NCBI GenBank assembly: GCA_017882375.1
Contig: JADGPP010000002.1
Span: 35,256 to 99,255, forward strand
Reading direction: 5' to 3'
Origin: Solirubrobacteraceae bacterium
GTDB lineage: Bacteria; Actinomycetota; Thermoleophilia; Solirubrobacterales; Solirubrobacteraceae
DNA length: 64,000 nucleotides
Made by a program: the position numbers and the translations under genes. The notes beneath the pieces were generated by a model. The model ran no database searches. It had not been told where the DNA came from and was given only the letters and a program-made list of their open reading frames with translations. Shown here piece after piece: positions 38,382 through 59,774 of this stretch. The first letter of the stretch is position 1, and the number at the start of each line of letters is the position of its first letter.

Positions 38382-39359
38382 ATGTACGTGTCCGACGATC
38401 GAGGCGACGATGCCTTGCCGTCCACAGCTGTCGGCGACCGCCCCGCCGAGATGGTCCCGATCGAGCACGAGGCAGCGGAGCGCGTGGCCAACGCCCTTGT
38501 GATCGCGCTGCCGCTCGCTGCGGTCGTGCTGGCCGCCTGGCTGGCTTGGGGTGGCAGCTTGCATTGGCAGGATCTGCTCGTGCTGCTGATCACCTACGTG
38601 TTCACGGGCATGGGCATCACGGTCGGGTTCCACCGCCTGTTCACGCATCGCAGCTTCGAGACGACCCGCACGCTGCGGATCGCGTTCGCGCTGCTGGGCT
38701 CGATGGCGGTCGAGGGGCCACTGATCGAGTGGGTCTCCACGCATCGCAAGCACCACCGATTCTCAGATCTCCCCGGCGACCCCCACAGCCCGCACGCCGA
38801 GCGCTCGGCCGGCTTGCGCGGGGCGCTGGGCGGGCTCGTCCACGCACACTTCGGTTGGATGTTCCGCGGCCAGGACATCGCCAACCCGCGCCGCTACGCC
38901 AAGGACCTGCTCGCCGACGGCGACCTTCGCTTCATCAGCCGCACGTTCCCGCTGTGGGTGCTGGTGGGGCTGGCGCTCCCGTTCGGGCTGGGCGTAGCGC
39001 TGACCGGCTCGCTTGTCGGCGGCCTGACGGGGCTGCTGTGGGGCGGTGCCGTGCGCATCTTCCTGCTGCACCACGCGACGTTCAGCATCAACTCGCTGTG
39101 CCACTTCTTCGGCCGGCGGTCGTTTGCCACGGGCGATCAGTCGCGCAACCTGGCGTGGCTGGCGCCGATCACCTTCGGCGAGGCCTGGCACAACAACCAC
39201 CACGCCTTTCCGACCTCCGCGCGCCACGGGCTCGGACGTCGCCAGCTCGACCCCGGCGCGTGGCTGATCGGGGGGCTCGAGCGCCTTCGCCTGGCGTGGG
39301 CGGTCGTGCGCGTGCGCCCCGAGCATCAGCGGGCCAAGCGGGTCGCCGGGGCTGCGTAG
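38382..39359 (+). CDS. Acyl-CoA/fatty-acid desaturase
   Basis: Histidine boxes HRLFTH, HRKHH, HNNHH; SD AAGGAGG upstream of ATG 38382. Confidence 0.93.
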   Translation: MYVSDDRGDDALPSTAVGDRPAEMVPIEHEAAERVANALVIALPLAAVVLAAWLAWGGSLHWQDLLVLLITYVFTGMGITVGFHRLFTHRSFETTRTLRIAFALLGSMAVEGPLIEWVSTHRKHHRFSDLPGDPHSPHAERSAGLRGALGGLVHAHFGWMFRGQDIANPRRYAKDLLADGDLRFISRTFPLWVLVGLALPFGLGVALTGSLVGGLTGLLWGGAVRIFLLHHATFSINSLCHFFGRRSFATGDQSRNLAWLAPITFGEAWHNNHHAFPTSARHGLGRRQLDPGAWLIGGLERLRLAWAVVRVRPEHQRAKRVAGAA

Positions 39360-39504: not shown

Positions 39505-41991
39505 ATGAACGACACCCCCCGCCCCACGCCGATCGTCGACGCGCTTGGCGTGACCGCCGACGCCAAGGTGCGCGCCGGGGAAGCCCTGCCCCTGGCCGCC
39601 CGCCACCTCGACCCATCGCTCGTCGACGTGCTGCGCATCCTCGGCTTCGACAAGCAGTACGCCTCGGCCCAGGGGTCCTATCTGTATGACACGGCGGGCC
39701 GGGCGTATCTCGACTTCCACACCGGCGAGGGGTTCTCGAGCCTTGGTCACAACCATCCCGGCGTGCGAGAGGTGCTTCAGGCCACGCTCGACGCCGACCT
39801 GGTCGACGGCGTGCAGATCCACTACTCGCCGCTGGCCGGCATGCTCGCCGAAGCGCTGTCGCAGCGTCTGCCCCACGGACTCGACGCCGTGTTCTTCACG
39901 AGCACGGGCGCCGAGGCCGTGGACTCGGCGATGAAGTTCGCGCGCGCGGCGACGGGGCGACCGCGCCTGATCTCCTGCGACAACGGCTTTCACGGTGTCA
40001 CGCTCGGGCCACTGTCGCTTGTCGGCGACGAGTTCTTCAAGGAGGGCTTCGGCCCGCTGCTGCCCGGCTGCGCGCGCGTTCCCCTCGGTGACCTCGCGCG
40101 CTTGGAGGCGCAGCTGCGAACGAAGGATGTCGCGGCCTTCATCGTCGAGCCGATCCAAGGCCGCATGGTGACGCTCCCACCCGCCGGCTATCTGCAGGGC
40201 GCACAGGAGCTGTGCCGGCGCTACGGCACGATGTTCGTGATCGACGAGATCCAGACCGGCCTCGGACGCACGGGCAAGTGGTTCGCGCTCGAGCACTGGG
40301 GACTGCAGCCGGACTTCGTGCTCGTCGGCAAGGCGCTCAGCGGCGGCTACATGCCGGTCGCCGCGATGGTCACGACCAGGGAGACCTACCAGAAGGCCGT
40401 GGGAACGCTGGAGCGCAGCTACGTGCATCAGTCGACGTTCGGGCGCAATCGCCTGTCGATGGCGGCGGGTCTGGCGGCGATGCGGATCATCGAGCGCGAT
40501 CAGTTGGTCGAGCACGCCGCGCGGATGGGCGGCCTGCTGCTGGACGGGCTCAGCGAGCTGCAGGGGCGCTACGAGATGATCAAGGACGTTCGCGCCAGCG
40601 GGCTGATGATCGGCATCGAGCTCGGCGCGCCGAGCTCCCGCGCTGCGCGGCTGAACTGGCGTCTGATCCACATGGCCAGCGAGGGGCTGTTTCCGCAGCT
40701 GATCGTCATCCCTCTGCATCGCGACCACGGCGTGATCACGATGGCCGCCGGCAAGAACGACGTGATCAAGCTGCTGCCGCCGCTGACGCTCTCAGAAAGC
40801 GAGGCGCGGAGCTTTCTCGGCGCGCTCGACGCCGTGCTCGCCGACTGTCACGGCGCTGCCGGCAAGAACTGGGGCGTCGTGCGCGACATCGCCACCTCGA
40901 CGCTGCGTCGCCGGCCGCCGCCGGACGCGCCTGTCGGCGACTGGACCCCGTCTCGCGGCAAGCCGGTCGATCCGTCGCGTGACGACGTCTGCCTGGTCAC
41001 CGGTGCGACCGGGTTCATCGGCGGGCGCCTGGCGAGACGACTGGTGCAGGAAGGTCATCCGGTGCGTTGCCTGGTGCGCGCGAGCAGCGACACGTCGCTG
41101 CTGGACGAGCTGGATGTCGAGATCGCCGTCGGCGATCTGACCAGCGGTCACTCGCTCGCCCGCGCGGTGGACGGCTGCGACTACGTCTTTCACTGCGGCG
41201 CGCTGGTATCGGACTGGGCCACCAAGCAAGAGATCATCCGAACCAACGTCGAGGGCACGCGGAGCCTGCTCGAAGCCTGCGTCGACGCGTCGGTACAGCG
41301 CTTCATCCATTTCAGCACGACGGACGTCTACGGCTATCCCGGCGGCGCGGAGATCGACGAGGCCTACGCTTCCGGGCGCTTTCGCAACTGGTATGCGCAG
41401 ACGAAGCTGGAGGCCGAGACGGAAGTCCGTCGCGTGGAAGGGTCACACGCGCTGGACGCCGTCATCCTGCGCCCGGCGACCGTCTACGGACCCGGCTCGA
41501 CGGATCTCGTCGGCGAGATCGCGCGCGCGATCCGCGCGCGCAACATGCTGCTGGTCGACGGAGGGCGCGCGGTCGCGGGCCTCTGCTACGTCGACAACCT
41601 CGTGGACGCCGCGCTTCTCGCGCTCCGCCACCAAGCCGCGCCCGGCCACGCCTTCAACGTCAGTGACGGCCTCGGCGTCACCTGGAGGGAGTTCACCGAT
41701 GGCCTGGCCGAGGGCCTCGGTTGCTCGAAGGTCCGTTGGAGCCTGCCCTACTGGGCGGCCAACAGCGTCGGCTTCTCGCTCGAGCACGGCTACCGGTTGC
41801 TGCGCAGGACGACCGGCCTGAACGCGCCGCCTCTGCTCTCCCGTCAAGCGGTGCAGGTCCTCGGAAAGAACCAGGACTTCAGCAATCGCAAAGCGCGAGA
41901 GGTGCTTGGTTGGGAGCCGCGTGTCGAGTACTCGGCCGGCCTGGAGGCGACGCTCGCCTGGCTGAGGACCGAGCACCTCGAGCACGCCTGA
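39505..41991 (+). CDS. Fusion: class III PLP aminotransferase + extended SDR (NAD-dependent epimerase / 3-beta-HSD-like)
   Basis: Aminotransferase: [65 protein letters not shown] active site, FNVSDG. Confidence 0.92.
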
Positions 41992-42752: not shown

Positions 42753-44483
42753 TCAGGGCTTCTGCGGATGCCCGCTGGGTGCTTCGTGGGCGCCACCGGC
42801 CGACGCGCCCTGTTCGCCCTGACCGTGGGAAGAGCCGCCGGCACTGCCGGCGCTGGGACCAGGTGCGCCCGGCGGCGAAGCGCCTTCCCCGTGGCCGCCG
42901 GCGGATTGGCCCGGCGGATTGCCGGTGGTGGGGCTGTTGGCGTTTGCGCTGCCCGCCGTGTTCCCGTTGCCCGGCGCGACGCCGTGCCCGCCGGCGCCTT
43001 CGCCGTTTGGATGCGCTGCCGGGCTGCCCGCCGCCGAGCTCGGGCCGTTGCCGTGGGCTTGGCCACTCTGGCCATGGGATGCGCCGTTGCCGTTGCCGTT
43101 GCCGTTGCCGTGGGCTTGGCCGCTACTGCCGTGGGCTGTCCCGTTGCCGTGGGCTCCTGCGCTCTTGCCGTGGGCCGTGGCGCTGCCGTGAGCTTCGCTG
43201 CTCTTGCCTTTGGCTTCTTCGCTGTTTCCGCGGCCGAGGCCGTTGCCATGAGCTTCGGCGCTCTTTCCCGGACCTGCGCCGCTGCTCTGCATTTGCGCGC
43301 CCTTGCCGTGACCGGCGCCGGCGGCGCTGGCGGTTCTGGACGACCTCGTGGGGCGATCGGTGGCCGGCCTCTGCCCCGTCTGCTTGGCGTCTCCCGCACC
43401 GCCAGCCCGCAGGGACACTGCCGCGTTGGCGCTGGTGTCGCGCGTGGCGAGTCCGTGCAAGCCGGCTGCATCGGCCGCAAGGCGCAGGCGTGTCACAGAG
43501 CGCGGGGGGCTCGTCGCAGCCGTGCTCAGCGCCAGCGTCCCGGCACCGGTTCCGACGCCCACGCCGGCTACGCCGATGAGCAGCTTGGCCACCAGCGCCT
43601 TGGCTCCGGTGCCGGCGAGCTCCGCGGTCGTTCCCGCGACCGATGCCCCGACGGTCGCGCCGCCCATGCACGTCCCGGCGCCGGGCGCGTTGCCCGCCGC
43701 CGCGTCGAGCACCCGGCGCTTGAGTGCCAGCGTAGGCGCCAGCGGAAGCAGGATGCCCAGCTGCCCGCGCTGACGGGATAGCTCGGCGGCGTAGTCGCGA
43801 CAGCCCTCACACGAGCGCAGATGGCGTCGAAGCTTGCCTTTCAGCAGCGCTGCGCCGCGAGCCGTGGAGAGCTCCATGCGTATCTCCGCGCAGTCGACGC
43901 TGCGCGCGACCCGCTCGGAGATCAGGCTCGACCGCGCCTGATAGATGTAGGACTTGACCCTCTCGGCGGGGATTCCGAGCACCGTGCCGATCTCACCGTG
44001 ACTGAGTCCGTGCAGCTCGGCCAGGACCAGCGCGGTCCGCTGGCGCTCGGGCAGATCGAGCATCGTCGCGACCACCTGGCGCAGGTTCTCGCGCTGCTCG
44101 GCCTGCACCGCCGGATCCTCGCCCGCCACGGCCGCCTCGTGGATCTCCGTCGTCGGTCGGCGCTTGCGCAGGATGCTCAGCGAGGCGTTGCGAGCGATCG
44201 AGAAGAGCCACGGGCGCAGATCCACGCGCCGCTCGTCGGCCATCAGCGCTCTGTACGCCGACGCGAACGTCGATTGCACGGCGTCCTCGGCGTCGTGCTT
44301 GGAGTCCAGGATGTAGCTGCAGAACACCAGCAGCTCGCGAGCGTGGCGGTCATAGAGGATCTCAAACGCCGTCAGGTCGCCGCGGCGCACGAGCGCAACG
44401 AGGCGGTCATCCGCCGCAAAACGAGGCCACACGCGACCACGAGCGCCGGGCACGACTGCGGCTGCTCGATGGCGATTGACCAA
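42753..44483 (-). CDS. ECF sigma factor fused to zinc-finger anti-sigma-like segment, TM helix and Gly/His repeat tail
   Basis: Sigma2 DRLVALVRRGDLTAFEILYDRHARELLVFCSYILDSKHDAEDAVQSTFASAYRAL; sigma4 LPERQRTALVLAELHGLSHGEIGTVLGIPAERVKSYIYQAR; HLRSCEGCRDY; KLLIGVAGVGVGTGAGTLALS; GKSAEAH-type tail. Confidence 0.85.
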   Translation of the reverse strand: MVNRHRAAAVVPGARGRVWPRFAADDRLVALVRRGDLTAFEILYDRHARELLVFCSYILDSKHDAEDAVQSTFASAYRALMADERRVDLRPWLFSIARNASLSILRKRRPTTEIHEAAVAGEDPAVQAEQRENLRQVVATMLDLPERQRTALVLAELHGLSHGEIGTVLGIPAERVKSYIYQARSSLISERVARSVDCAEIRMELSTARGAALLKGKLRRHLRSCEGCRDYAAELSRQRGQLGILLPLAPTLALKRRVLDAAAGNAPGAGTCMGGATVGASVAGTTAELAGTGAKALVAKLLIGVAGVGVGTGAGTLALSTAATSPPRSVTRLRLAADAAGLHGLATRDTSANAAVSLRAGGAGDAKQTGQRPATDRPTRSSRTASAAGAGHGKGAQMQSSGAGPGKSAEAHGNGLGRGNSEEAKGKSSEAHGSATAHGKSAGAHGNGTAHGSSGQAHGNGNGNGNGASHGQSGQAHGNGPSSAAGSPAAHPNGEGAGGHGVAPGNGNTAGSANANSPTTGNPPGQSAGGHGEGASPPGAPGPSAGSAGGSSHGQGEQGASAGGAHEAPSGHPQKP

Positions 44484-51891: not shown

Positions 51892-53034
51892 ATGGGCCCC
51901 CCCGCGAAGCCGCCGCCCCCTCGCAGACGAGCCCGCCAGCGGCGCGCTGGTCTGATCGTCGCGGCGATCCTGCTCGCGGGGCTGCTCGCGTTTGCGCTCT
52001 CGCGGCTGGGGTTGCATCGGATCGGCCACGCGCTGATCACCGCCAAGCCGGGATGGGTGGCGCTGGCGTTCGTGCTGATGGCCTGCTCGCTGGTGCTGCG
52101 CTCGGTCTCCTGGCACCAGACGCTGCGCGCGGCGCTGCCGGAGACGCGGATCCCCTGGCCGGCCGTCACGCGCGCGACGATGATCGGGGTGATGGCCTCG
52201 GCGGTCGTCCCCGGGCGGATCGGCGAGCCGACCCGCGTCGTCGTGCTCACGCGCAGGCTCGACGGACCCAGCAAGCGCCAGCTGCCGATCGTCGCCGGCA
52301 CGGTGTTCTCGCAGACGCTGATCAACCTGCTCGCGCTGGGCATCCTCGCGGCGATCACGTTCACCAGCGTCCCGCTGCTCAACGGGCATCCGGCGGGGAT
52401 CGCCACGGCGATCGCGATCCCGCTGCTGATCTGCGCGCTGGTCGTCGCCGGCCCGCGGCTGGTCGCGCTGGGCCGCCGGGCGCGCTCGCGGCGCGTGGCC
52501 AAGGCGGCCGACGCGGTCGCCGCGGCGCTCAGCCTCGCGCGCCGCGGCCTGATCGTGTTCGCGCGTCCGCGCTATGGCAGCACGGCGGTCGCCGGTCAGC
52601 TGGCGGCGTGGGCGCTGCAATGGCTCGCCTGCTACATGGTCGTGCTCGCCTTGGGCCTGCAGGACAAGGCCGGGTTGGCCGCGGCGGCGGCGATCCTGCT
52701 GGCGGTCAACGTCAGCGCGATCCTGCCCGCCACGCCCTCTAACGTCGGCGTCTTTCAGGCAGCCTGTCTGGTCGTCCTGACCGCCTACGGCGTCGGCGGC
52801 GGCCCCGGCTTGGCCTACGGCATCATCCTGCAGGCGGTGGAGGTGCTGACGGCGCTCGCCCTCGGCGTTCCGGCGCTGCTGGGCGAGGGGCTGACGTGGC
52901 GTGAGATCCGCGCGGAGTCGCAGACCGAGCGAGCGCGCGAGGAGGCATCGCCGGACGATCTGCCGTCGAGCCCGGGCGAGGCGGCGTCGATCGGAGGTGG
53001 CGAGGGGACGTCAGCCGGCGATCGCGCGCAGTGA
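51892..53034 (+). CDS. Lysylphosphatidylglycerol synthase TM-region/flippase-like protein (HpnL-like by family and context)
   Basis: VVPGRIGEPTRVVVLTRRL, ILPATPSNVGVFQAACLVVLTAYGV; multi-pass. Confidence 0.75.
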   Translation: MGPPAKPPPPRRRARQRRAGLIVAAILLAGLLAFALSRLGLHRIGHALITAKPGWVALAFVLMACSLVLRSVSWHQTLRAALPETRIPWPAVTRATMIGVMASAVVPGRIGEPTRVVVLTRRLDGPSKRQLPIVAGTVFSQTLINLLALGILAAITFTSVPLLNGHPAGIATAIAIPLLICALVVAGPRLVALGRRARSRRVAKAADAVAAALSLARRGLIVFARPRYGSTAVAGQLAAWALQWLACYMVVLALGLQDKAGLAAAAAILLAVNVSAILPATPSNVGVFQAACLVVLTAYGVGGGPGLAYGIILQAVEVLTALALGVPALLGEGLTWREIRAESQTERAREEASPDDLPSSPGEAASIGGGEGTSAGDRAQ

Positions 53035-54012
53035 CTGGCGCAGCGAGCGCGTGGTCTGCAGCACGGCCGTGGGCTCGTAGCCGCAGTGCGCCATGCAGTT
53101 TTCACAGCGCGGGTCCTTGCCACGACCGTACTTGCTCCAGTCGGTCGTCTCCAGCAGCTCTTTGTAGGTCTCGGTGTAGCCGTCGGCCATCAGGTAGCAG
53201 GGGCGCTGCCAGCCGAACAGCGAGTAGCTGGGGATGCCCCACGCGGTGCAGTCGAATTCGGCCTTGCCCTCGAGGAAGTCGAGGAACAGCGGGCTGTGGT
53301 TCAGGCGCCACTTCTTGCGCCGGCCTTCGCCGAAGGCCTCCTTGAACAGCTTGCGCGTCTCGGTCACGCCGAGGAAGTGCTCCTGGTCGGGAGCTTTCTC
53401 GTAGGCGTAGGCGGGCGAGATCATCATTTCGTCGACTTCGAGGTCGTCGTTGAGGAAGTCCAGCACCTCACGCACGGTCTTCGGCGAGTCCTGCGTGAAG
53501 AACGTCGTGTTCGTGGTGACGCGAAAGCCCGCCGCTTTGGCGGCCTTGATCGCCGCGACGGCCTTGTCGAAGACGCCCTCGCGCTCGACCGAGGCGTCGT
53601 GGCGCTCCTGCAGGCCGTCCATGTGCACCGCCCAGGAGAAGTACGGGCTCGGCTTGAAGTTCTCGAGCTTCTTCTCCAGCAGCAGCGCATTGGTGCACAG
53701 GTAGACGAACTTCTTGCGCTTGATCAGCTCGGCGGCGATCACGTGGATCTCCGGATGGATCAGCGGCTCGCCGCCGGCGATCGAGACCATCGGCGCACCG
53801 CTCTCCTCGATCGCGCCGATCGCCTGCTCGACGGGCATCCGCCGGCGCAGCTCGTGCTCGGGATGCTGGATCTTGCCGCAGCCCGAGCAGGCCAGGTTGC
53901 ACTGGAACAGCGGCTCGAGCTCGACGATCAGCGGGAACTTCTCACGTTTGGCAAGACGCTGGCGCATCAGGTACCAACCCATGCGCGTGCTCTGCCTGAC
54001 CCGGACCGCCAT
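53011..54012 (-). CDS. hpnH: Adenosyl-hopene transferase HpnH (radical SAM)
   Basis: LFQCNLACSGCGKIQHP, SIAGGEPLIHPEI, CENCMAHCGYEPTAV. Confidence 0.95.
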   Translation of the reverse strand: MAVRVRQSTRMGWYLMRQRLAKREKFPLIVELEPLFQCNLACSGCGKIQHPEHELRRRMPVEQAIGAIEESGAPMVSIAGGEPLIHPEIHVIAAELIKRKKFVYLCTNALLLEKKLENFKPSPYFSWAVHMDGLQERHDASVEREGVFDKAVAAIKAAKAAGFRVTTNTTFFTQDSPKTVREVLDFLNDDLEVDEMMISPAYAYEKAPDQEHFLGVTETRKLFKEAFGEGRRKKWRLNHSPLFLDFLEGKAEFDCTAWGIPSYSLFGWQRPCYLMADGYTETYKELLETTDWSKYGRGKDPRCENCMAHCGYEPTAVLQTTRSLRQSLRAIAG

Positions 54013-54022
54013 GCCGGGTACC

Positions 54023-54616
54023 TTAGCCCGCCGTGTCCCAGTCCTTAAGGGTCACCGCCGAAGCGCGCCGCAGAACGCGCGCGGCGTGCAGCGCCCAGCC
54101 CAGCGCCCGCGGGCGAAACAGCTCGTGACTGGGGCTGTCGAGTACCACGCGCACGACTGCGAACGGCCGTCCGGCGGCGCCGGCGGCCAGCCACGCGGAC
54201 TCCATGTCGACGGCCAGCGCCCCGGCCGCGCGCAGCTGCTCGCGCCGCTCGCCGGTGGCGATCTTGGCGACGCCGACGATCGGCCCCCGCCGCACCGTCA
54301 GCCCGGCGCCGCTCAGCGCGTCGGCCAGCTGCGTCGCGCCGTGGCAGCTCGCCTGGACGCGATCGTGCCCCTCGTCGGCGGCGGCGAGCACGTGATCGGC
54401 GACAATCACTTCGCCGGGTCGCGCCTGCGCGTCCAGTCCGCCGCAGAAGCCGAGCACCAGCAGCGCGTCGCCGGGCTCGCGCGACAGCGCGTCGGCCGCT
54501 CTGCGCGACTTCTCCGGACCCATGCCCGTCTTGCGCACGTGCGCCCCGCGCGCGCCCGAGCGGATCAGCATCTCCTCGAGACTCAGCGGCGCGGCGACGA
54601 CCACGCGGCGGCTCAT
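54023..54616 (-). CDS. hpnG: Adenosylhopane nucleosidase/phosphorylase HpnG
   Basis: LLVLGFCGGLDAQARPGEVIVADHV, AVDMESAWLA; located between hpnH and hpnE. Confidence 0.88.
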   Translation of the reverse strand: MSRRVVVAAPLSLEEMLIRSGARGAHVRKTGMGPEKSRRAADALSREPGDALLVLGFCGGLDAQARPGEVIVADHVLAAADEGHDRVQASCHGATQLADALSGAGLTVRRGPIVGVAKIATGERREQLRAAGALAVDMESAWLAAGAAGRPFAVVRVVLDSPSHELFRPRALGWALHAARVLRRASAVTLKDWDTAG

Positions 54617-56016
54617 CCTGGCACCGCGCCCGGCTCGCCGGTCGCTGCCGTGCTGGCCTGCGGGCCGTGCGCGTTCGGCGCCGCCGGCTCCAGGGCGAGC
54701 GCCGCGAGCGCCTCGGCAGCGGCGGCGTGCCCGCTCATCACGGCACCCTCGAGCGTCGCCGGCCATCCGGTGTCCGTCCAGCTGCCCGCGAGCACGAGCC
54801 CGGGAACGGATGTGCGCGGCCGCGGTCGCAGCACCGCCGTCCCAGGTACGGCGCGGAACGTTGCGGCGTGCTCGCGCGTGGCCAGGAAGCGCTCGACCGT
54901 CGCGTCGCGCGCGCCGGGAAGCAGCTCTTTCAAGGCCGGCACGTAGCGCGCGCGCAGCTCGTCGACGCTCATCCGCATCTGCTCGTCGGCCGCCGACAGC
55001 GAGACCGCCAGATACTGACATCCCGGCGGGGCGCCCGCGGCGGCGCTGCGGTCGAACACGTACTGCACGGGCGTGTCCACGCCGGCCGCGAAGGGCTCCT
55101 CGCAGACGACGCGGTCGAACACCACGTGCAGGTTGACGATCGGCGAGCTGCCCAGTCCGCGAACCGTCTGCGCCAGCTGTGGCAGCAGTGCCTCCAGCAG
55201 ACCTGCCGCGCGGGCGTGGGGCAAGGCGACGATCACCGCCTCGGAGCTGAAGCCCCCCTCCCCGCCCTCGACCTCAAACCCGGCGCCTGTGCGTCGCAGG
55301 CCGTGCGCGCGCCAGCCGAGGCGAAACTGAACCCCGGCGTCGGCCAGCGCACGCTCGGCCGGCTCGCCGATCGTCTCTGCGAGCGTGCCGACGTGAAAGC
55401 CGATGTCGCCGGCATCGGCGCCCGTGAGCAGCCCTGTGCGGAACACGAACGCGCCGAGCGCGAGCGAGGCCTCGGCGGCGGGGACGTTGAGCGTCGGCAA
55501 GGCGATCAGGTCCCACAGGACGCTCACCGCGTGCGCATCCTGGCCGCGCTCGGCCAGCCACGCGCCGAACGTCTGGCCGTCAAGCGCCGGGTCGGCCGGG
55601 TCGAGGCTCGTGAGCGCGCGCGCCGCGAGCGCTGCGCTGAGGCGCTCAGACGGACTGAGGTGGGGATAGCGCGCCAGCGCGCCGGCGAGGTGAAACGGCG
55701 GCGGCAGTGAGCCGCGGCGCAGCACGACCGGCTGCGCGCGCGGGCTCAGCACGGGAATCTCCAGGCGCTCCTGCACCGAGACGTGGTGCTCTGAGCCCAG
55801 CCGCGCCAGCAACGAGCGATAGGCCGAGCAGCAGCGCAGGAAGACGTGCTGGCCGTTGTCGAAGTGCATGCCGTCGCGCTCGAAGGAGTAGGCCGCGCCG
55901 CCGAGCCTGCGCCGGACCTCGACGAGGGTGACGCGCGCGCCGGCCGCGGCGCAGTCCAGCGCCGCGGCGATCCCGGCCAGGCCGCCGCCGATCACCAGCA
56001 CGCGCCGCTCGCCGCT
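54613..56016 (-). CDS. hpnE: Hydroxysqualene dehydroxylase HpnE
   Basis: VLVIGGGLAGIAAALDCAAAGARVTLVEVRRRLGGAAYSF, HFDNGQHVFLRCC, GSWTDTGWPATLEGAVMSG; GTG start. Confidence 0.92.
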   Translation of the reverse strand, partial: SGERRVLVIGGGLAGIAAALDCAAAGARVTLVEVRRRLGGAAYSFERDGMHFDNGQHVFLRCCSAYRSLLARLGSEHHVSVQERLEIPVLSPRAQPVVLRRGSLPPPFHLAGALARYPHLSPSERLSAALAARALTSLDPADPALDGQTFGAWLAERGQDAHAVSVLWDLIALPTLNVPAAEASLALGAFVFRTGLLTGADAGDIGFHVGTLAETIGEPAERALADAGVQFRLGWRAHGLRRTGAGFEVEGGEGGFSSEAVIVALPHARAAGLLEALLPQLAQTVRGLGSSPIVNLHVVFDRVVCEEPFAAGVDTPVQYVFDRSAAAGAPPGCQYLAVSLSAADEQMRMSVDELRARYVPALKELLPGARDATVERFLATREHAATFRAVPGTAVLRPRPRTSVPGLVLAGSWTDTGWPATLEGAVMSGHAAAAEALAALALEPAAPNAHGPQASTAATGEPGAVPG

Positions 56017-56939
56017 CACACGCTCCTCCCGGCGATGCTGCGCAGGGCAACCCGGACCTTCTCGCCGGCCGACAGCGAGGCGCGCTGGTGCAGCGCGCGC
56101 TGCGGATCGGCCCCGATCCGCGCCAGCAGGCGGTGGTAGATGCCGCTCATCGCCAGCACGCACGCGGCACTGCGCCTGTCCAGCAGCGGCACGAGCCGCA
56201 TGCCGCGATCGAACCACTGCTGCGCGCGCTCGGCCTCGAAGCGCACGAGCGCGCCGAGCGAATCCGGCGACGCCGTCTCTCCACGCAGTGCCGCGAGCAT
56301 CTCGGCGGCGCCGGCGGCGCCCGGCCCGGAGATCACGCCGAAGCGCCGCAGATCCTCGGCGGGCAGGTAGACGCGCCCGATCTCGGCGTCCTCGCGCACG
56401 TCGCGCAGGATGTTCGTGAGCTGCAGCGCGACGCCGAGCTCGTCGGCGAGCCGTTCGGCTTGCGCGCGGTCCACCCTGGCTGCGCCGCGCGCTCGCGTGC
56501 CGAAGATCGCCAGGCAGACGCGCCCGATCGCGCCGGCCACGCGCCGGCAGTAGACCACGAGATCCTCGATGCGCTCATACGTCACGCCGTCGACGTCCAT
56601 GCGCACCCCCTCGATCAGCTCGCCCATCGCACCGGGCGGAAGCGCGAAGCGACGGTGCGCGTCGGCGAGCGCCACGATCACCGGGTCCCGCGCAGCGTGC
56701 TGCGCCGAGCCGGTCCGTTCGAGCGCGCTCAACTGCTCGGCGGCCTCGTCGAGCAGCGCACGCTTGCGCTCGCGGTCGAGGTCGCCGTCGCCGATGTCGT
56801 CGACGCGCCGGGCGAACGCGTAGGCGGCGCACATCGCCCGGCGACGCTCGGGCGCCAGCAGGCGGATGCCGTAGTAGAAGTTCGCCGCCTGCGAGCGCGT
56901 GATCGCCGCACAGCGGGCGTAGGCCTCCTTCGTGGGCAT
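56016..56939 (-). CDS. hpnD: Presqualene diphosphate synthase HpnD
   Basis: NFYYGIRLLAPERRRAMCAAYAFARRVDDIGD, QLTNILRDVREDAEIGRVYLPAEDL. Confidence 0.93.
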   Translation of the reverse strand: MPTKEAYARCAAITRSQAANFYYGIRLLAPERRRAMCAAYAFARRVDDIGDGDLDRERKRALLDEAAEQLSALERTGSAQHAARDPVIVALADAHRRFALPPGAMGELIEGVRMDVDGVTYERIEDLVVYCRRVAGAIGRVCLAIFGTRARGAARVDRAQAERLADELGVALQLTNILRDVREDAEIGRVYLPAEDLRRFGVISGPGAAGAAEMLAALRGETASPDSLGALVRFEAERAQQWFDRGMRLVPLLDRRSAACVLAMSGIYHRLLARIGADPQRALHQRASLSAGEKVRVALRSIAGRSV

Positions 56940-56982
56940 CTCGCGGCTCACGACGCCGCCCTGGCGCGGCATTCGCCGCCGA

Positions 56983-57879
56983 TCACGAGCGGCTCGGTGC
57001 TGCGCCCGTCGTGCCGCTCCGGCGCTGCTTGAAGAGCACGCCGGCCAGCGCGCGCAGCCGCTCCCAGCCCGAAGCTCGCGGCGGCCCGGAGAGGACGTCA
57101 TAGCGCGCGCGCTCGATCGCGTGCAGCGCGGCGTGCCCGCCGGCGACGAACGCGGCGACGGCCAGGCGCTCGCGTCCGCGCAACTCGCCCACCAACGGCG
57201 TGCCCTCGTCGAGCAGGGCGCGTGCGCGCTGCACCTCGAACGCGAGCACGGCGCGCAGGGCCGTGTCGTCGCGCTCGGCGCGGGGGTCGATATCGGCCGT
57301 CGTGGCGCCGAAGCGCGCGAGGTCCTCGGCGGGCAGGTAGATGCGCCCGGCGGCGAAGTCCTCGGCGACGTCCTGGCAGTGCTCGGCCAGCTGCAGCGCC
57401 GTGCAGATCGAGTCCGACAGGGCGATCCGCGCGGGGGTCGCCTTGGCGAAGATGCCGAGCACGATCTCGCCCACCGGGTCGGCCGACAGCGCGCAGTAGC
57501 CGCGCAACTGCTGCCAGGTCTCATAGCGGCTGATGCGCTGGTCGGCGCGGTTTGCCTCGATCAGGCGCTCGAACGGCTCGCGCGGCAGCGCGCACTCGCG
57601 CACGGTCACCGCCAGGCGGCGCATCAGCGGGTGCTCCGGCGTGCCCTCGTAGGCGCGCTGCAGGTCGCGCCCCAGCCAATCGAGCGCCTCCAGCCGATCG
57701 CCGGGCGCGGAGTCGCCGAGTTCGTCGACCAGCCGAGCGAAGCCGTACACGGCGAGCATGTGCGCGCGCACGCGGCGCGGCAGCACCCTGCTGGCGACCG
57801 GGAAGTTCTCGCCCTCGGCGCGCGCCATCACCTCGCGAGCGCTCGGCGCCCTCGGCGCGGCGTCGGCGAGCAGCATCAT
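56983..57879 (-). CDS. hpnC: Hydroxysqualene synthase HpnC
   Basis: ENFPVASRVLPRRVRAHMLAVYGFARLVDELGD, QLAEHCQDVAEDFAAGRIYLPAEDL. Confidence 0.93.
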   Translation of the reverse strand: MMLLADAAPRAPSAREVMARAEGENFPVASRVLPRRVRAHMLAVYGFARLVDELGDSAPGDRLEALDWLGRDLQRAYEGTPEHPLMRRLAVTVRECALPREPFERLIEANRADQRISRYETWQQLRGYCALSADPVGEIVLGIFAKATPARIALSDSICTALQLAEHCQDVAEDFAAGRIYLPAEDLARFGATTADIDPRAERDDTALRAVLAFEVQRARALLDEGTPLVGELRGRERLAVAAFVAGGHAALHAIERARYDVLSGPPRASGWERLRALAGVLFKQRRSGTTGAAPSRS

Positions 57880-59774
57880 CGCCGGCAGCGTCCGAGCGCC
57901 ATGATCGGAAAGGCGAGCCTGTAGAGGTGGTAGTTGATGTAGTAGTCGGAGGGAAAGCCGGTGCCGGTGTACTGCGGCTCGTCCCAGCCCCCGTCGGCGC
58001 GCTGGGTGGCGACCAGCCAGCCGACCCCCCGCTCGATCGCCTCGGGAGCGCCCTTCGCGGCGTGCAGGGCCAGCAGCGCCCAGGCGGTCTGCGAGGCCGT
58101 GCTCGGGCCCCGCCCGATCCACTCCTCCTCGTCGTAGGAGCGCGGGTCCTCGCCCCAGCCGCCGTCGTCGTTCTGGTGGTCCAGCAGCCAGCGCAGCGCG
58201 CGCTTAATGCACTGCTCGGAGGGGTCCATGCCGGCGGCGATGAGCGCGGGAACGGCGGCGCCGGTGCCGTACACGTGGTTGACGCCCCAGCGCCCGAACC
58301 ACGACCCGTCGGCCTCCTGCTGCTCGACCAGCCAGCGCATCCCGCGCTGTGCGACGGGCGTGTCGAGCAGCCCGAGCTCGGCGAGCATCTCCAGCGCGTG
58401 CGCGCTGACGTCGGCGCTCGGCTCGTCGATCACCTCGCCGAAGTCCAGGAACGGTAGCTCGCGGACCATCGTGCGCGTGTTCTCCGCGTCGAAGGCGCCC
58501 CAGCCCCCGCCGGAGCTCTGCATGCCCTCCACCCAGCGGGCGGCGCGCCGCACCGCACCGCTCAGCCGCGCGTTGTCCTTGACGCGGCGCAGGGCGAGGA
58601 CGACCTCGGCGGTGTCGTCGACATCGGGGTAGTTGACGTTGGCGAACTCGAAGGCCCAGCCGCCGGGAGCGAGGCGCGGCCTGGCGACCGACCAGTCCCC
58701 GGGGATCGTGACCTCCTCCCCCAGCAGCCAGTCGGCCGCGCGCGCGAGCGCGGGATGGTCGCCGGGCAGCCCGGCGTCGCTCAGCGCGATCAGCGCCAGC
58801 GCGGTGTCCCAGACGGGCGACTGACAGGCTTCCAGGCGCCGGCTGCGGCCCGCCGGCGCACCGACCGCCCGCGAGTCGTCGCGGTCCTCGACCATGAAGT
58901 TGTTCAGGCCGTCCATTCCGCGGCGCATGACCGGGTGATCGGGCGCGTAGCCGGACAGGTGCAGGGCGATCAGCGAGTAGACCCACGGCGGCTGGATCCC
59001 GCCCCACGAGCCGTCGGCCTCCTGGCGGCGCACGATCCAGCGCTCCGCGCGTGCCAGTGCGATCCGCCGCAGCAGTCGCAGCGGCCGGCGTTCGTAGGCG
59101 CGCAGGATGCGGTCCCCGCGAGCCAGCCACCGCGCGCGCGGCGCGGCCTGGGGCTCTGCCGCGTCCTGCGGGCGCTCGACCCGCAGCTCGTCCAGGTCGA
59201 ATGGCAGCTCGCGCGCCGGCCGGTGGGTTTTGACGAGCGAAAGCGCGACGATCGTCTGGCGTGCCCAGCAGGCGAAGTCGTAGATGTTCAGGGGAAACCA
59301 CGACGGCAGCAGGACGATCTCCGGCGGCAGCGCCGGAACGTCCTCCCACGACCACAGGCCGAACAGCGCGAGCCACAGGTGGGTGAACACGCGCGCGTTC
59401 GCGACACCGCCCTGTTCGCGGATGAACTCGGCGGCCGTGCGCATGTGCTCGGCGTCGGGCCGATCGCCGGCGAGACGCAGTGCCCAGTAGGCCTCGATCG
59501 TCGTCGACAGGTCGCCGGGGCCGCCGTAGAAGTTCGTCCAGGTTCCGTCGGCGCGCTGCTGGGAGCGGATCCACGCCGCCGAGCGCTCGGTCTCGTCGGC
59601 TCGGCGCACGCCGAGGAACTCGCGCAGGAGCATGTCCTCGGCGTCCATCGTCACGTTGGTCTGCAGCTCGCCCTGCCACCAGCCGGCCCGGTCCTGCAGC
59701 GAGAGCAGGTGCTCGCAGGCGAGCTCCAACGCCATCTGAGCCTCGTTTTGGGCCTCTATGGTTGACGACGCCAT
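57876..59774 (-). CDS. shc: Squalene-hopene cyclase
   Basis: DVDDTAEVVLAL catalytic motif, QW repeats (QEADGSWFGRWGVNHVYGT, RADGGWDEPQYTGTGFP). Confidence 0.97.
   Translation of the reverse strand: MASSTIEAQNEAQMALELACEHLLSLQDRAGWWQGELQTNVTMDAEDMLLREFLGVRRADETERSAAWIRSQQRADGTWTNFYGGPGDLSTTIEAYWALRLAGDRPDAEHMRTAAEFIREQGGVANARVFTHLWLALFGLWSWEDVPALPPEIVLLPSWFPLNIYDFACWARQTIVALSLVKTHRPARELPFDLDELRVERPQDAAEPQAAPRARWLARGDRILRAYERRPLRLLRRIALARAERWIVRRQEADGSWGGIQPPWVYSLIALHLSGYAPDHPVMRRGMDGLNNFMVEDRDDSRAVGAPAGRSRRLEACQSPVWDTALALIALSDAGLPGDHPALARAADWLLGEEVTIPGDWSVARPRLAPGGWAFEFANVNYPDVDDTAEVVLALRRVKDNARLSGAVRRAARWVEGMQSSGGGWGAFDAENTRTMVRELPFLDFGEVIDEPSADVSAHALEMLAELGLLDTPVAQRGMRWLVEQQEADGSWFGRWGVNHVYGTGAAVPALIAAGMDPSEQCIKRALRWLLDHQNDDGGWGEDPRSYDEEEWIGRGPSTASQTAWALLALHAAKGAPEAIERGVGWLVATQRADGGWDEPQYTGTGFPSDYYINYHLYRLAFPIMALGRCRR

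What the first reader, a model, noticed from the sequence alone, without database searches (positions are those of the whole stretch)
39505..41991. 828-aa class III aminotransferase fused to an NAD-dependent SDR
Complete PLP-aminotransferase and complete extended SDR (GxxGxxG and YxxxK intact) in one chain. Chemically this could be a self-contained alcohol-to-amine converter (oxidise OH, then transaminate). Hopanoid genes lie in the same window, and hopanoid pathways use a class III aminotransferase (HpnO) and an epimerase-like SDR (HpnA), so a role in aminated hopanoids or another lipid amine is plausible but unproven. It sits right after a desaturase.
Basis: partly seen in the sequence, partly recalled or inferred. 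Interest (0 to 1): 0.68.

Follow-up and report, generated by a model that had tools for sequence, protein, structure and literature searches.

The report
Fused hopanoid-type aminotransferase and reductase
A soil actinobacterium carries one protein that joins an aminotransferase, closely related to the enzyme that puts the amine on bacterial hopanoid membrane lipids, to a dehydrogenase/reductase that sits beside it as a separate gene in relatives, pointing to a second, still unknown step in making amine-bearing hopanoids.

Summary
The 828-aa fusion is real: a complete class III aminotransferase (AT, residues ~20-465) joined by a variable ~30-residue linker to a complete extended SDR (495-822). 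It recurs in many Solirubrobacterales, including two single-contig genomes. In others the same proteins are separate genes whose ends overlap by 4 bp. The separate pair also occurs in two Verrucomicrobiota and one Bradymonadales MAG. Neighbouring genes are not conserved, so the unit is this two-step enzyme.

The AT half forms its own clade, joined to HpnO, the aminobacteriohopanetriol aminotransferase (support 100/99), excluding PigE. The two share a rewired active site: the OAT Glu235/Arg413 positions are Lys/Lys in HpnO and Arg/Lys here.

In Thermoleophilia 20 of 21 genomes with the pair have HpnH, against 0 of 19 without any such AT. Nineteen of 21 also carry a separate true HpnO, so this is an additional enzyme.

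The SDR is catalytically intact but matches neither HpnA nor OleD at cut-off. It looks NADP(H)-type, not NAD-type.

Best reading: a hopanoid side-chain enzyme in which SDR and transaminase act in sequence on one carbon, probably alcohol to carbonyl to amine. The hopanoid assignment is fairly strong; substrate, position and direction are inference.

The parts
39505..40920 (+). N-terminal half: class III PLP aminotransferase of the HpnO superclade, distinct subclade (residues ~1-472; PLP lysine K276; Arg220 at the OAT-Glu235 position, Lys422 at the OAT-Arg413 position)
   Evidence: Pfam; trees; residue analysis
40921..40986 (+). Variable linker; in relatives with separate genes this is where AT stop and SDR start overlap by 4 bp
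40987..41988 (+). C-terminal half: extended SDR (TGATGFIG; S604/Y630/K634; beta-2 Arg525, NADP(H)-type), nearest characterised kinds OleD/HpnA/3beta-HSD
53011..54012 (-). hpnH, adenosylhopane synthase (context; shows the host makes extended hopanoids)
   Evidence: TIGR03470 527 bits, cut-off 225
54023..54616 (-). hpnG-like phosphorylase (context)
   Evidence: TIGR03468 90 bits, below cut-off 187
54613..59735 (-). hpnE, hpnD, hpnC and shc (context)
   Evidence: NCBIfam; HpnD 275 bits, just below cut-off 278.6
38382..39359 (+). Acyl-CoA Delta9-type desaturase directly upstream (context; association uncertain)
   Evidence: Pfam FA_desaturase; homologue distribution; Delta9 type judged from histidine boxes

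Best explanation
A bifunctional side-chain enzyme of extended hopanoids. Shown by sequence: an HpnO-type transaminase is consistently paired with, and repeatedly fused to, an intact NADP(H)-type extended SDR, in hopanoid producers that mostly already have HpnO. Inferred: the SDR interconverts a hydroxyl and a carbonyl on the polyol chain of a C35 bacteriohopanepolyol derived from ribosylhopane, and the transaminase exchanges that carbonyl for an amine with an amino-acid donor. The net conversion would be alcohol to amine at a position, or on a substrate, that HpnO does not serve. Fusion or translational coupling would keep the reactive carbonyl between the two sites.
For: AT half clusters with HpnO excluding PigE at 100/99 and 98. 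The true HpnO lies beside hpnH in L087/L088 and in a Streptomyces hpn cluster. Basic-for-Glu at the OAT switch position: R220 in 21/21 pair members, K220 in 40/41 HpnO rows, and E in PigE and PatA; Lys422 replaces the Arg in both clades. Co-occurrence with HpnH: 20/21 pair-bearing Thermoleophilia against 1/20 without a strong AT hit, the one being a genome with HpnO present but below the search threshold, with same-genus contrasts G1017/G031, G875/G892 and G1051/G854. The three pair-bearing MAGs outside the phylum all have SHC and two have HpnH. HpnO is retained alongside in 19/21. The AT-SDR pair is conserved while neighbours are not. Separate genes overlap by 4 bp.
Against: No biochemistry and no lipid data from any carrier. 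The pair is not in the hpn cluster. The NADP(H)-type Arg fits a reductase better than an alcohol oxidase. Two carriers lack both HpnH and SHC (G072, G078; completeness not reported). Co-occurrence inside Solirubrobacterales partly reflects shared ancestry and the presence of HpnO. The AU test does not decide whether the clade is nested in HpnO or sister to it (p 0.43). I know of no described diamino-hopanoid.
Confidence: 0.45

Rival explanations
1. Hopanoid enzyme in which the SDR works as a reductase: it reduces the C35 aldehyde of ribosylhopane (the unidentified BHT-forming step) or a keto-BHP, while the AT serves the amine branch or runs in reverse (amine to aldehyde). The fusion is then a branch-point or interconversion enzyme between aminotriol and BHT.
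For: Invariant beta-2 Arg predicts NADP(H). Nearest families OleD and Gox2253 are reductases (their activity from general knowledge). The ribosylhopane-to-BHT enzyme is stated as not established (PMC12583986). HpnO is adjacent to HpnA-type SDRs in L094, L106 and L107.
Against: HpnH-positive relatives without the pair are common, so it cannot be the general BHT reductase. Competing use of one aldehyde gives little reason to fuse.
Confidence: 0.2
2. The pair acts on a different lipid or polyketide-like carbonyl (long-chain amine, sphingoid-like base, PigE-like chemistry), and the link with hopanoids is a shared habitat or lineage effect.
For: Best curated family hit of the AT is PigE (391 bits, cut-off 850). 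The SDR is closest to OleD, an acyl-chain ketoreductase. Fatty-acid desaturases sit upstream in the window and in L039.
Against: PigE is excluded from the HpnO plus AT-SDR clade and lacks the basic switch residue. Co-occurrence with HpnH holds within genera and across phyla. The two desaturases belong to different types and none was found at the other loci.
Confidence: 0.2
3. General amine or polyol catabolism enzyme (PatA/GabT-like transaminase plus sugar dehydrogenase) unrelated to lipids.
For: Class III ATs and extended SDRs are abundant and promiscuous families. Locus neighbours are varied metabolic genes.
Against: Phylogeny, active-site signature and tight co-occurrence with HpnH. The canonical Glu235/Arg413 switch residues of ornithine-type aminotransferases are lost.
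Confidence: 0.1

Closest known systems
HpnO (aminobacteriohopanetriol aminotransferase; Streptomyces hpn cluster AT, Solirubrobacterales HpnO)
   Same: Class III fold, about 46% identity, one superclade (100/99), basic residue at the OAT-Glu235 site and Lys at the OAT-Arg413 site, host genomes carry hpnH
   Different: R220/H82/F77/V299 instead of K/R/V/F; followed by or fused to its own SDR; present in addition to HpnO
PigE (prodigiosin MAP aminotransferase, PDB 4ppm)
   Same: Class III AT domain, about 40% identity, top curated and PDB hit; also part of a multidomain protein (aldehyde substrate from general knowledge)
   Different: Outside the HpnO clade; Glu at the switch position; different partner domain, placed N-terminal to the AT; 391 bits against cut-off 850
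HpnA (hopanoid-associated sugar epimerase, TIGR03466; Gox2253 3wj7)
   Same: Extended SDR of the same broad group, beta-2 Arg; HpnA-type genes sit next to HpnO in a few relatives
   Different: 159 bits against cut-off 368; about 28-34% identity; own invariant motifs (VSDW, STTDVYG.PG, WY, LLSRQAV)
OleD (2-alkyl-3-ketoalkanoate reductase, NF042422)
   Same: Best-scoring SDR equivalog (169 bits); NADP(H) use of OleD from general knowledge
   Different: Far below cut-off 580; no Ole-type genes noticed next to the pair

Membership tests
HpnO | Groups with bona fide HpnO (gene in hpn cluster) to the exclusion of PigE, PatA and other class III ATs | tested here: met
   Superclade support 100/99, 98; sister or nested not resolved (AU p 0.43)
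HpnO | HpnO active-site signature K220/R82 | tested here: not met
   R220/H82 in 21/21 pair members; K/R in 40/41 HpnO rows
HpnO | Only HpnO-type AT of the genome (ortholog rather than extra paralog) | tested here: not met
   Separate HpnO in 19/21 carriers, including the window genome
HpnO | Makes 35-aminobacteriohopanetriol | not testable with these tools
   Needs knockout and LC-MS
HpnA | TIGR03466 curated cut-off 367.65 bits | tested here: not met
   159 bits
OleD | NF042422 curated cut-off 580 bits | tested here: not met
   169 bits
PigE | NF053554 cut-off 850 bits and pig cluster context | tested here: not met
   391 bits; neighbours differ from real pig clusters
Extended SDR | TGxxGxxG and S-YxxxK catalytic residues | tested here: met
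   Present in the window protein and conserved in relatives
Class III aminotransferase | Aminotran_3 domain with PLP lysine | tested here: met
   E 4e-93; K276 in 21/21

The most novel reading that the evidence does not exclude
A previously undescribed branch of hopanoid side-chain biosynthesis: an HpnO-related transaminase and a dedicated SDR, fused or coupled, replace a second hydroxyl of the bacteriohopanepolyol chain by an amine, giving a diamino- or position-shifted amino-hopanoid in Solirubrobacterales and scattered Verrucomicrobiota and Bradymonadales.
Probability: 0.3. Interest if true: 0.72.

Novelty: new variant of a known kind. Interest (0 to 1): 0.52.

Why it matters
Hopanoids are widespread bacterial membrane lipids and their fossils are used to read ancient ecosystems. 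A recent survey states that the enzyme turning ribosylhopane into BHT and the role of HpnA are unknown, and that amino-hopanoids occur in more species than hpnO (PMC12583986). A conserved HpnO-like transaminase/SDR pair names one concrete gene to test for new amino-hopanoid chemistry, and its Arg220 signature gives a simple way to separate it from true HpnO in genome surveys.

Tried and rejected
Proximity to the hopanoid cluster as evidence: rejected, because the gene is far from hpnH in other genomes (G1074, G875). Desaturase as functional partner: homologues of the window desaturase lie directly upstream of HpnO in five genomes (L090, L095, L168-L170) and a different desaturase type precedes the fusion in L039, but other pair loci have none, so left as a lead. 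Assembly artefact as the cause of the fusion: rejected (single-contig genomes, several MAGs). Single origin of fusion: the tree needs 4 changes but starred branches force only 1, so undecided. AlphaFold of the whole fusion: failed (pLDDT 48, 7-sequence alignment). Fold search of the SDR model gave generic epimerases and Gox2253, with no substrate clue. Proteobacterial HpnO sequences could not be placed in the tree with the searches left. Literature searches for a described fusion found none in the open library; subscription papers were not covered.

Full report
Observation. The ORF at 39505-41991 (+) encodes 828 residues. Pfam finds a full Aminotran_3 domain (52-445) and a full NAD(P)-binding Epimerase/3Beta_HSD-type domain (497-~820) in the same chain. 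Catalytic residues of both halves are intact and conserved in relatives. dN/dS against two close fused relatives is 0.17 (AT) and 0.13-0.18 (SDR), with a looser linker at 0.38-0.48. The host is a Solirubrobacterales MAG (close relatives named); the window is contig C2 of a 3.57 Mb, 96% complete genome.

Anatomy across genomes. The same fused gene occurs in L039-L044 and in G052, and in single-contig genomes G1074 and G875. In L045-L049, L052, L053 and others the two proteins are separate genes, and the AT stop overlaps the SDR start by 4 bp. More distant separate pairs occur in a Methylacidiphilales MAG (L054), a Verrucomicrobiae MAG (L055) and a Bradymonadales MAG (L057), at 56-59% identity for the AT and 42-47% for the SDR. 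Genes on either side are not conserved. The conserved unit is therefore the pair itself, and the fusion is one state of it. On a tree of the joined proteins the fused state needs four changes, but a single origin is not excluded.

What the AT half is. The first curated hit is PigE at less than half its cut-off. Searching relatives showed a second, about 45% identical AT in most genomes of the genus. That paralogue is HpnO. It lies next to hpnH-hpnG-...-shc in L087 and L088. Its Streptomyces counterpart is the last gene of an annotated hpnC-hpnD-hpnE-shc-hpnH-ispG-dxs cluster. HpnH and this AT also lie close together on the same contig in further genomes, for example G1051, G943, G875 and G1027. 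In a tree of 76 ATs the pair-associated ATs form one clade (100), joined with HpnO (98) and apart from PigE. A bootstrapped tree of 49 gives 100/100 for the pair clade and 100/99 for pair plus HpnO. Whether the pair clade lies inside HpnO or beside it is not resolved (AU p 0.43). An independent sign is the active site. The position equivalent to ornithine aminotransferase Glu235, which forms a salt bridge with Arg413 and is proposed to act as a switch between half-reactions (PMC9136103), is Glu in PigE and PatA, Lys in 40 of 41 HpnO rows, and Arg in 21 of 21 pair ATs. The Arg413 position is Lys in both clades. The assignment of these columns to OAT numbering rests on the EPIQGE and xRxxPP motifs, from general knowledge. 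The single row of the HpnO set with Glu (L150) comes from G666, the only genome of that comparison without HpnH.

Link with hopanoids. In the phyla of L055 and L057, 21 of 22 genomes with an AT of this superclade have HpnH, against 0 of 48 sampled genomes with a weaker hit or none. In Thermoleophilia, HpnH is present in 20 of 21 pair-bearing genomes, 22 of 24 with HpnO only, and 1 of 20 without a strong AT hit; that one (G017) does have an HpnO, which fell below the search threshold because its match is in two pieces. Same-genus contrasts agree: G1017 has both and G031 neither (g9), G875 has both and G892/G895 neither (g37), G1051 has both and G854 neither (g35). Of the 19 pair-bearing genomes in the named collection, 15 have HpnH over cut-off and 17 have HpnH or SHC, the three outside the phylum included. 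These counts treat related genomes as separate, so the P values overstate the case; the within-genus and cross-phylum contrasts are the stronger part. The association of the AT superclade with hopanoids is strong. That of the pair specifically rests on its place in the superclade, the three outside genomes and the contrasts. Nineteen of 21 carriers also have HpnO, and the two exceptions are only 75-76% complete, so the pair most likely does something extra.

What the SDR half is. It is an extended SDR with an intact triad and an invariant Arg at the end of beta-2, which in NADPH-dependent relatives such as dihydroflavonol reductase binds the 2'-phosphate (general knowledge). It scores 169 bits to OleD and 159 to HpnA, far under both cut-offs. 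Closest solved structure by sequence is Gox2253, 3wj7. The predicted structure is good (pLDDT 85) and matches Gox2253 and sugar epimerases. In three relatives HpnO itself is followed by an HpnA-type SDR, so coupling of this AT type to an SDR has happened more than once.

Mechanism. Fusion and 4-bp coupling argue for sequential steps on one molecule through a shared carbonyl. With HpnO already present, the simplest scheme is that the SDR oxidises a hydroxyl of the C35 polyol chain and the AT aminates the resulting carbonyl. Direction is not shown, and the NADP(H)-type pocket leaves room for the reverse or for a reductase role, including the unidentified conversion of ribosylhopane to BHT (PMC12583986). 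I give the alcohol-to-amine hopanoid reading 0.45, the reductase or interconversion reading 0.2, another lipid or polyketide 0.2, and general metabolism 0.1. Some hopanoid role overall is about 0.65-0.7.

Verdict. It is a new variant of a known kind: an HpnO-like transaminase with a dedicated SDR partner, sometimes fused. Not proven: substrate, position, direction and product.

Noticed in passing
L090 9605-10600, L095 9138-10139, L168 4829-5701, L169 6891-7754, L170 526-1479: A Delta9-type desaturase gene lies directly upstream of HpnO in five genomes of the window's genus (one gene away in L171); the window's related desaturase precedes the AT-SDR fusion instead.
   Followed up: partly
L039 6898-9327: A phosphatidylserine decarboxylase-like gene and a different, linoleoyl-type desaturase form an apparent operon with the AT-SDR fusion in this MAG.
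   Followed up: no
L088 10562-12103 (-): HpnG-like phosphorylase fused to LytB/IspH (last enzyme of the MEP pathway) inside a hopanoid cluster.
   Followed up: partly
L094 7339-9719, L106 2820-3800, L107 500-1450: HpnO immediately followed by an HpnA-type SDR, a second AT plus SDR pairing in the hopanoid setting.
   Followed up: partly
L175 7375-9811: In single-contig genome G1017 the pair AT is split by a frame break (382 + 94 aa) before the SDR; sequencing error or decay.
   Followed up: no
L182 985-2004: A second, 54% identical copy of the SDR without the AT, next to an M20 peptidase and a phage-type integrase, in a genome that also has the fusion.
   Followed up: no
window 42753-44390 (-): 545-aa protein with ECF sigma regions 2 and 4 in its first ~160 residues and a long unassigned C-terminal part.
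   Followed up: no
L099 6037-7350: A distant AT of about 37% identity in a Rhizobium plasmid phosphonate cluster (aepX, aepY).
   Followed up: no
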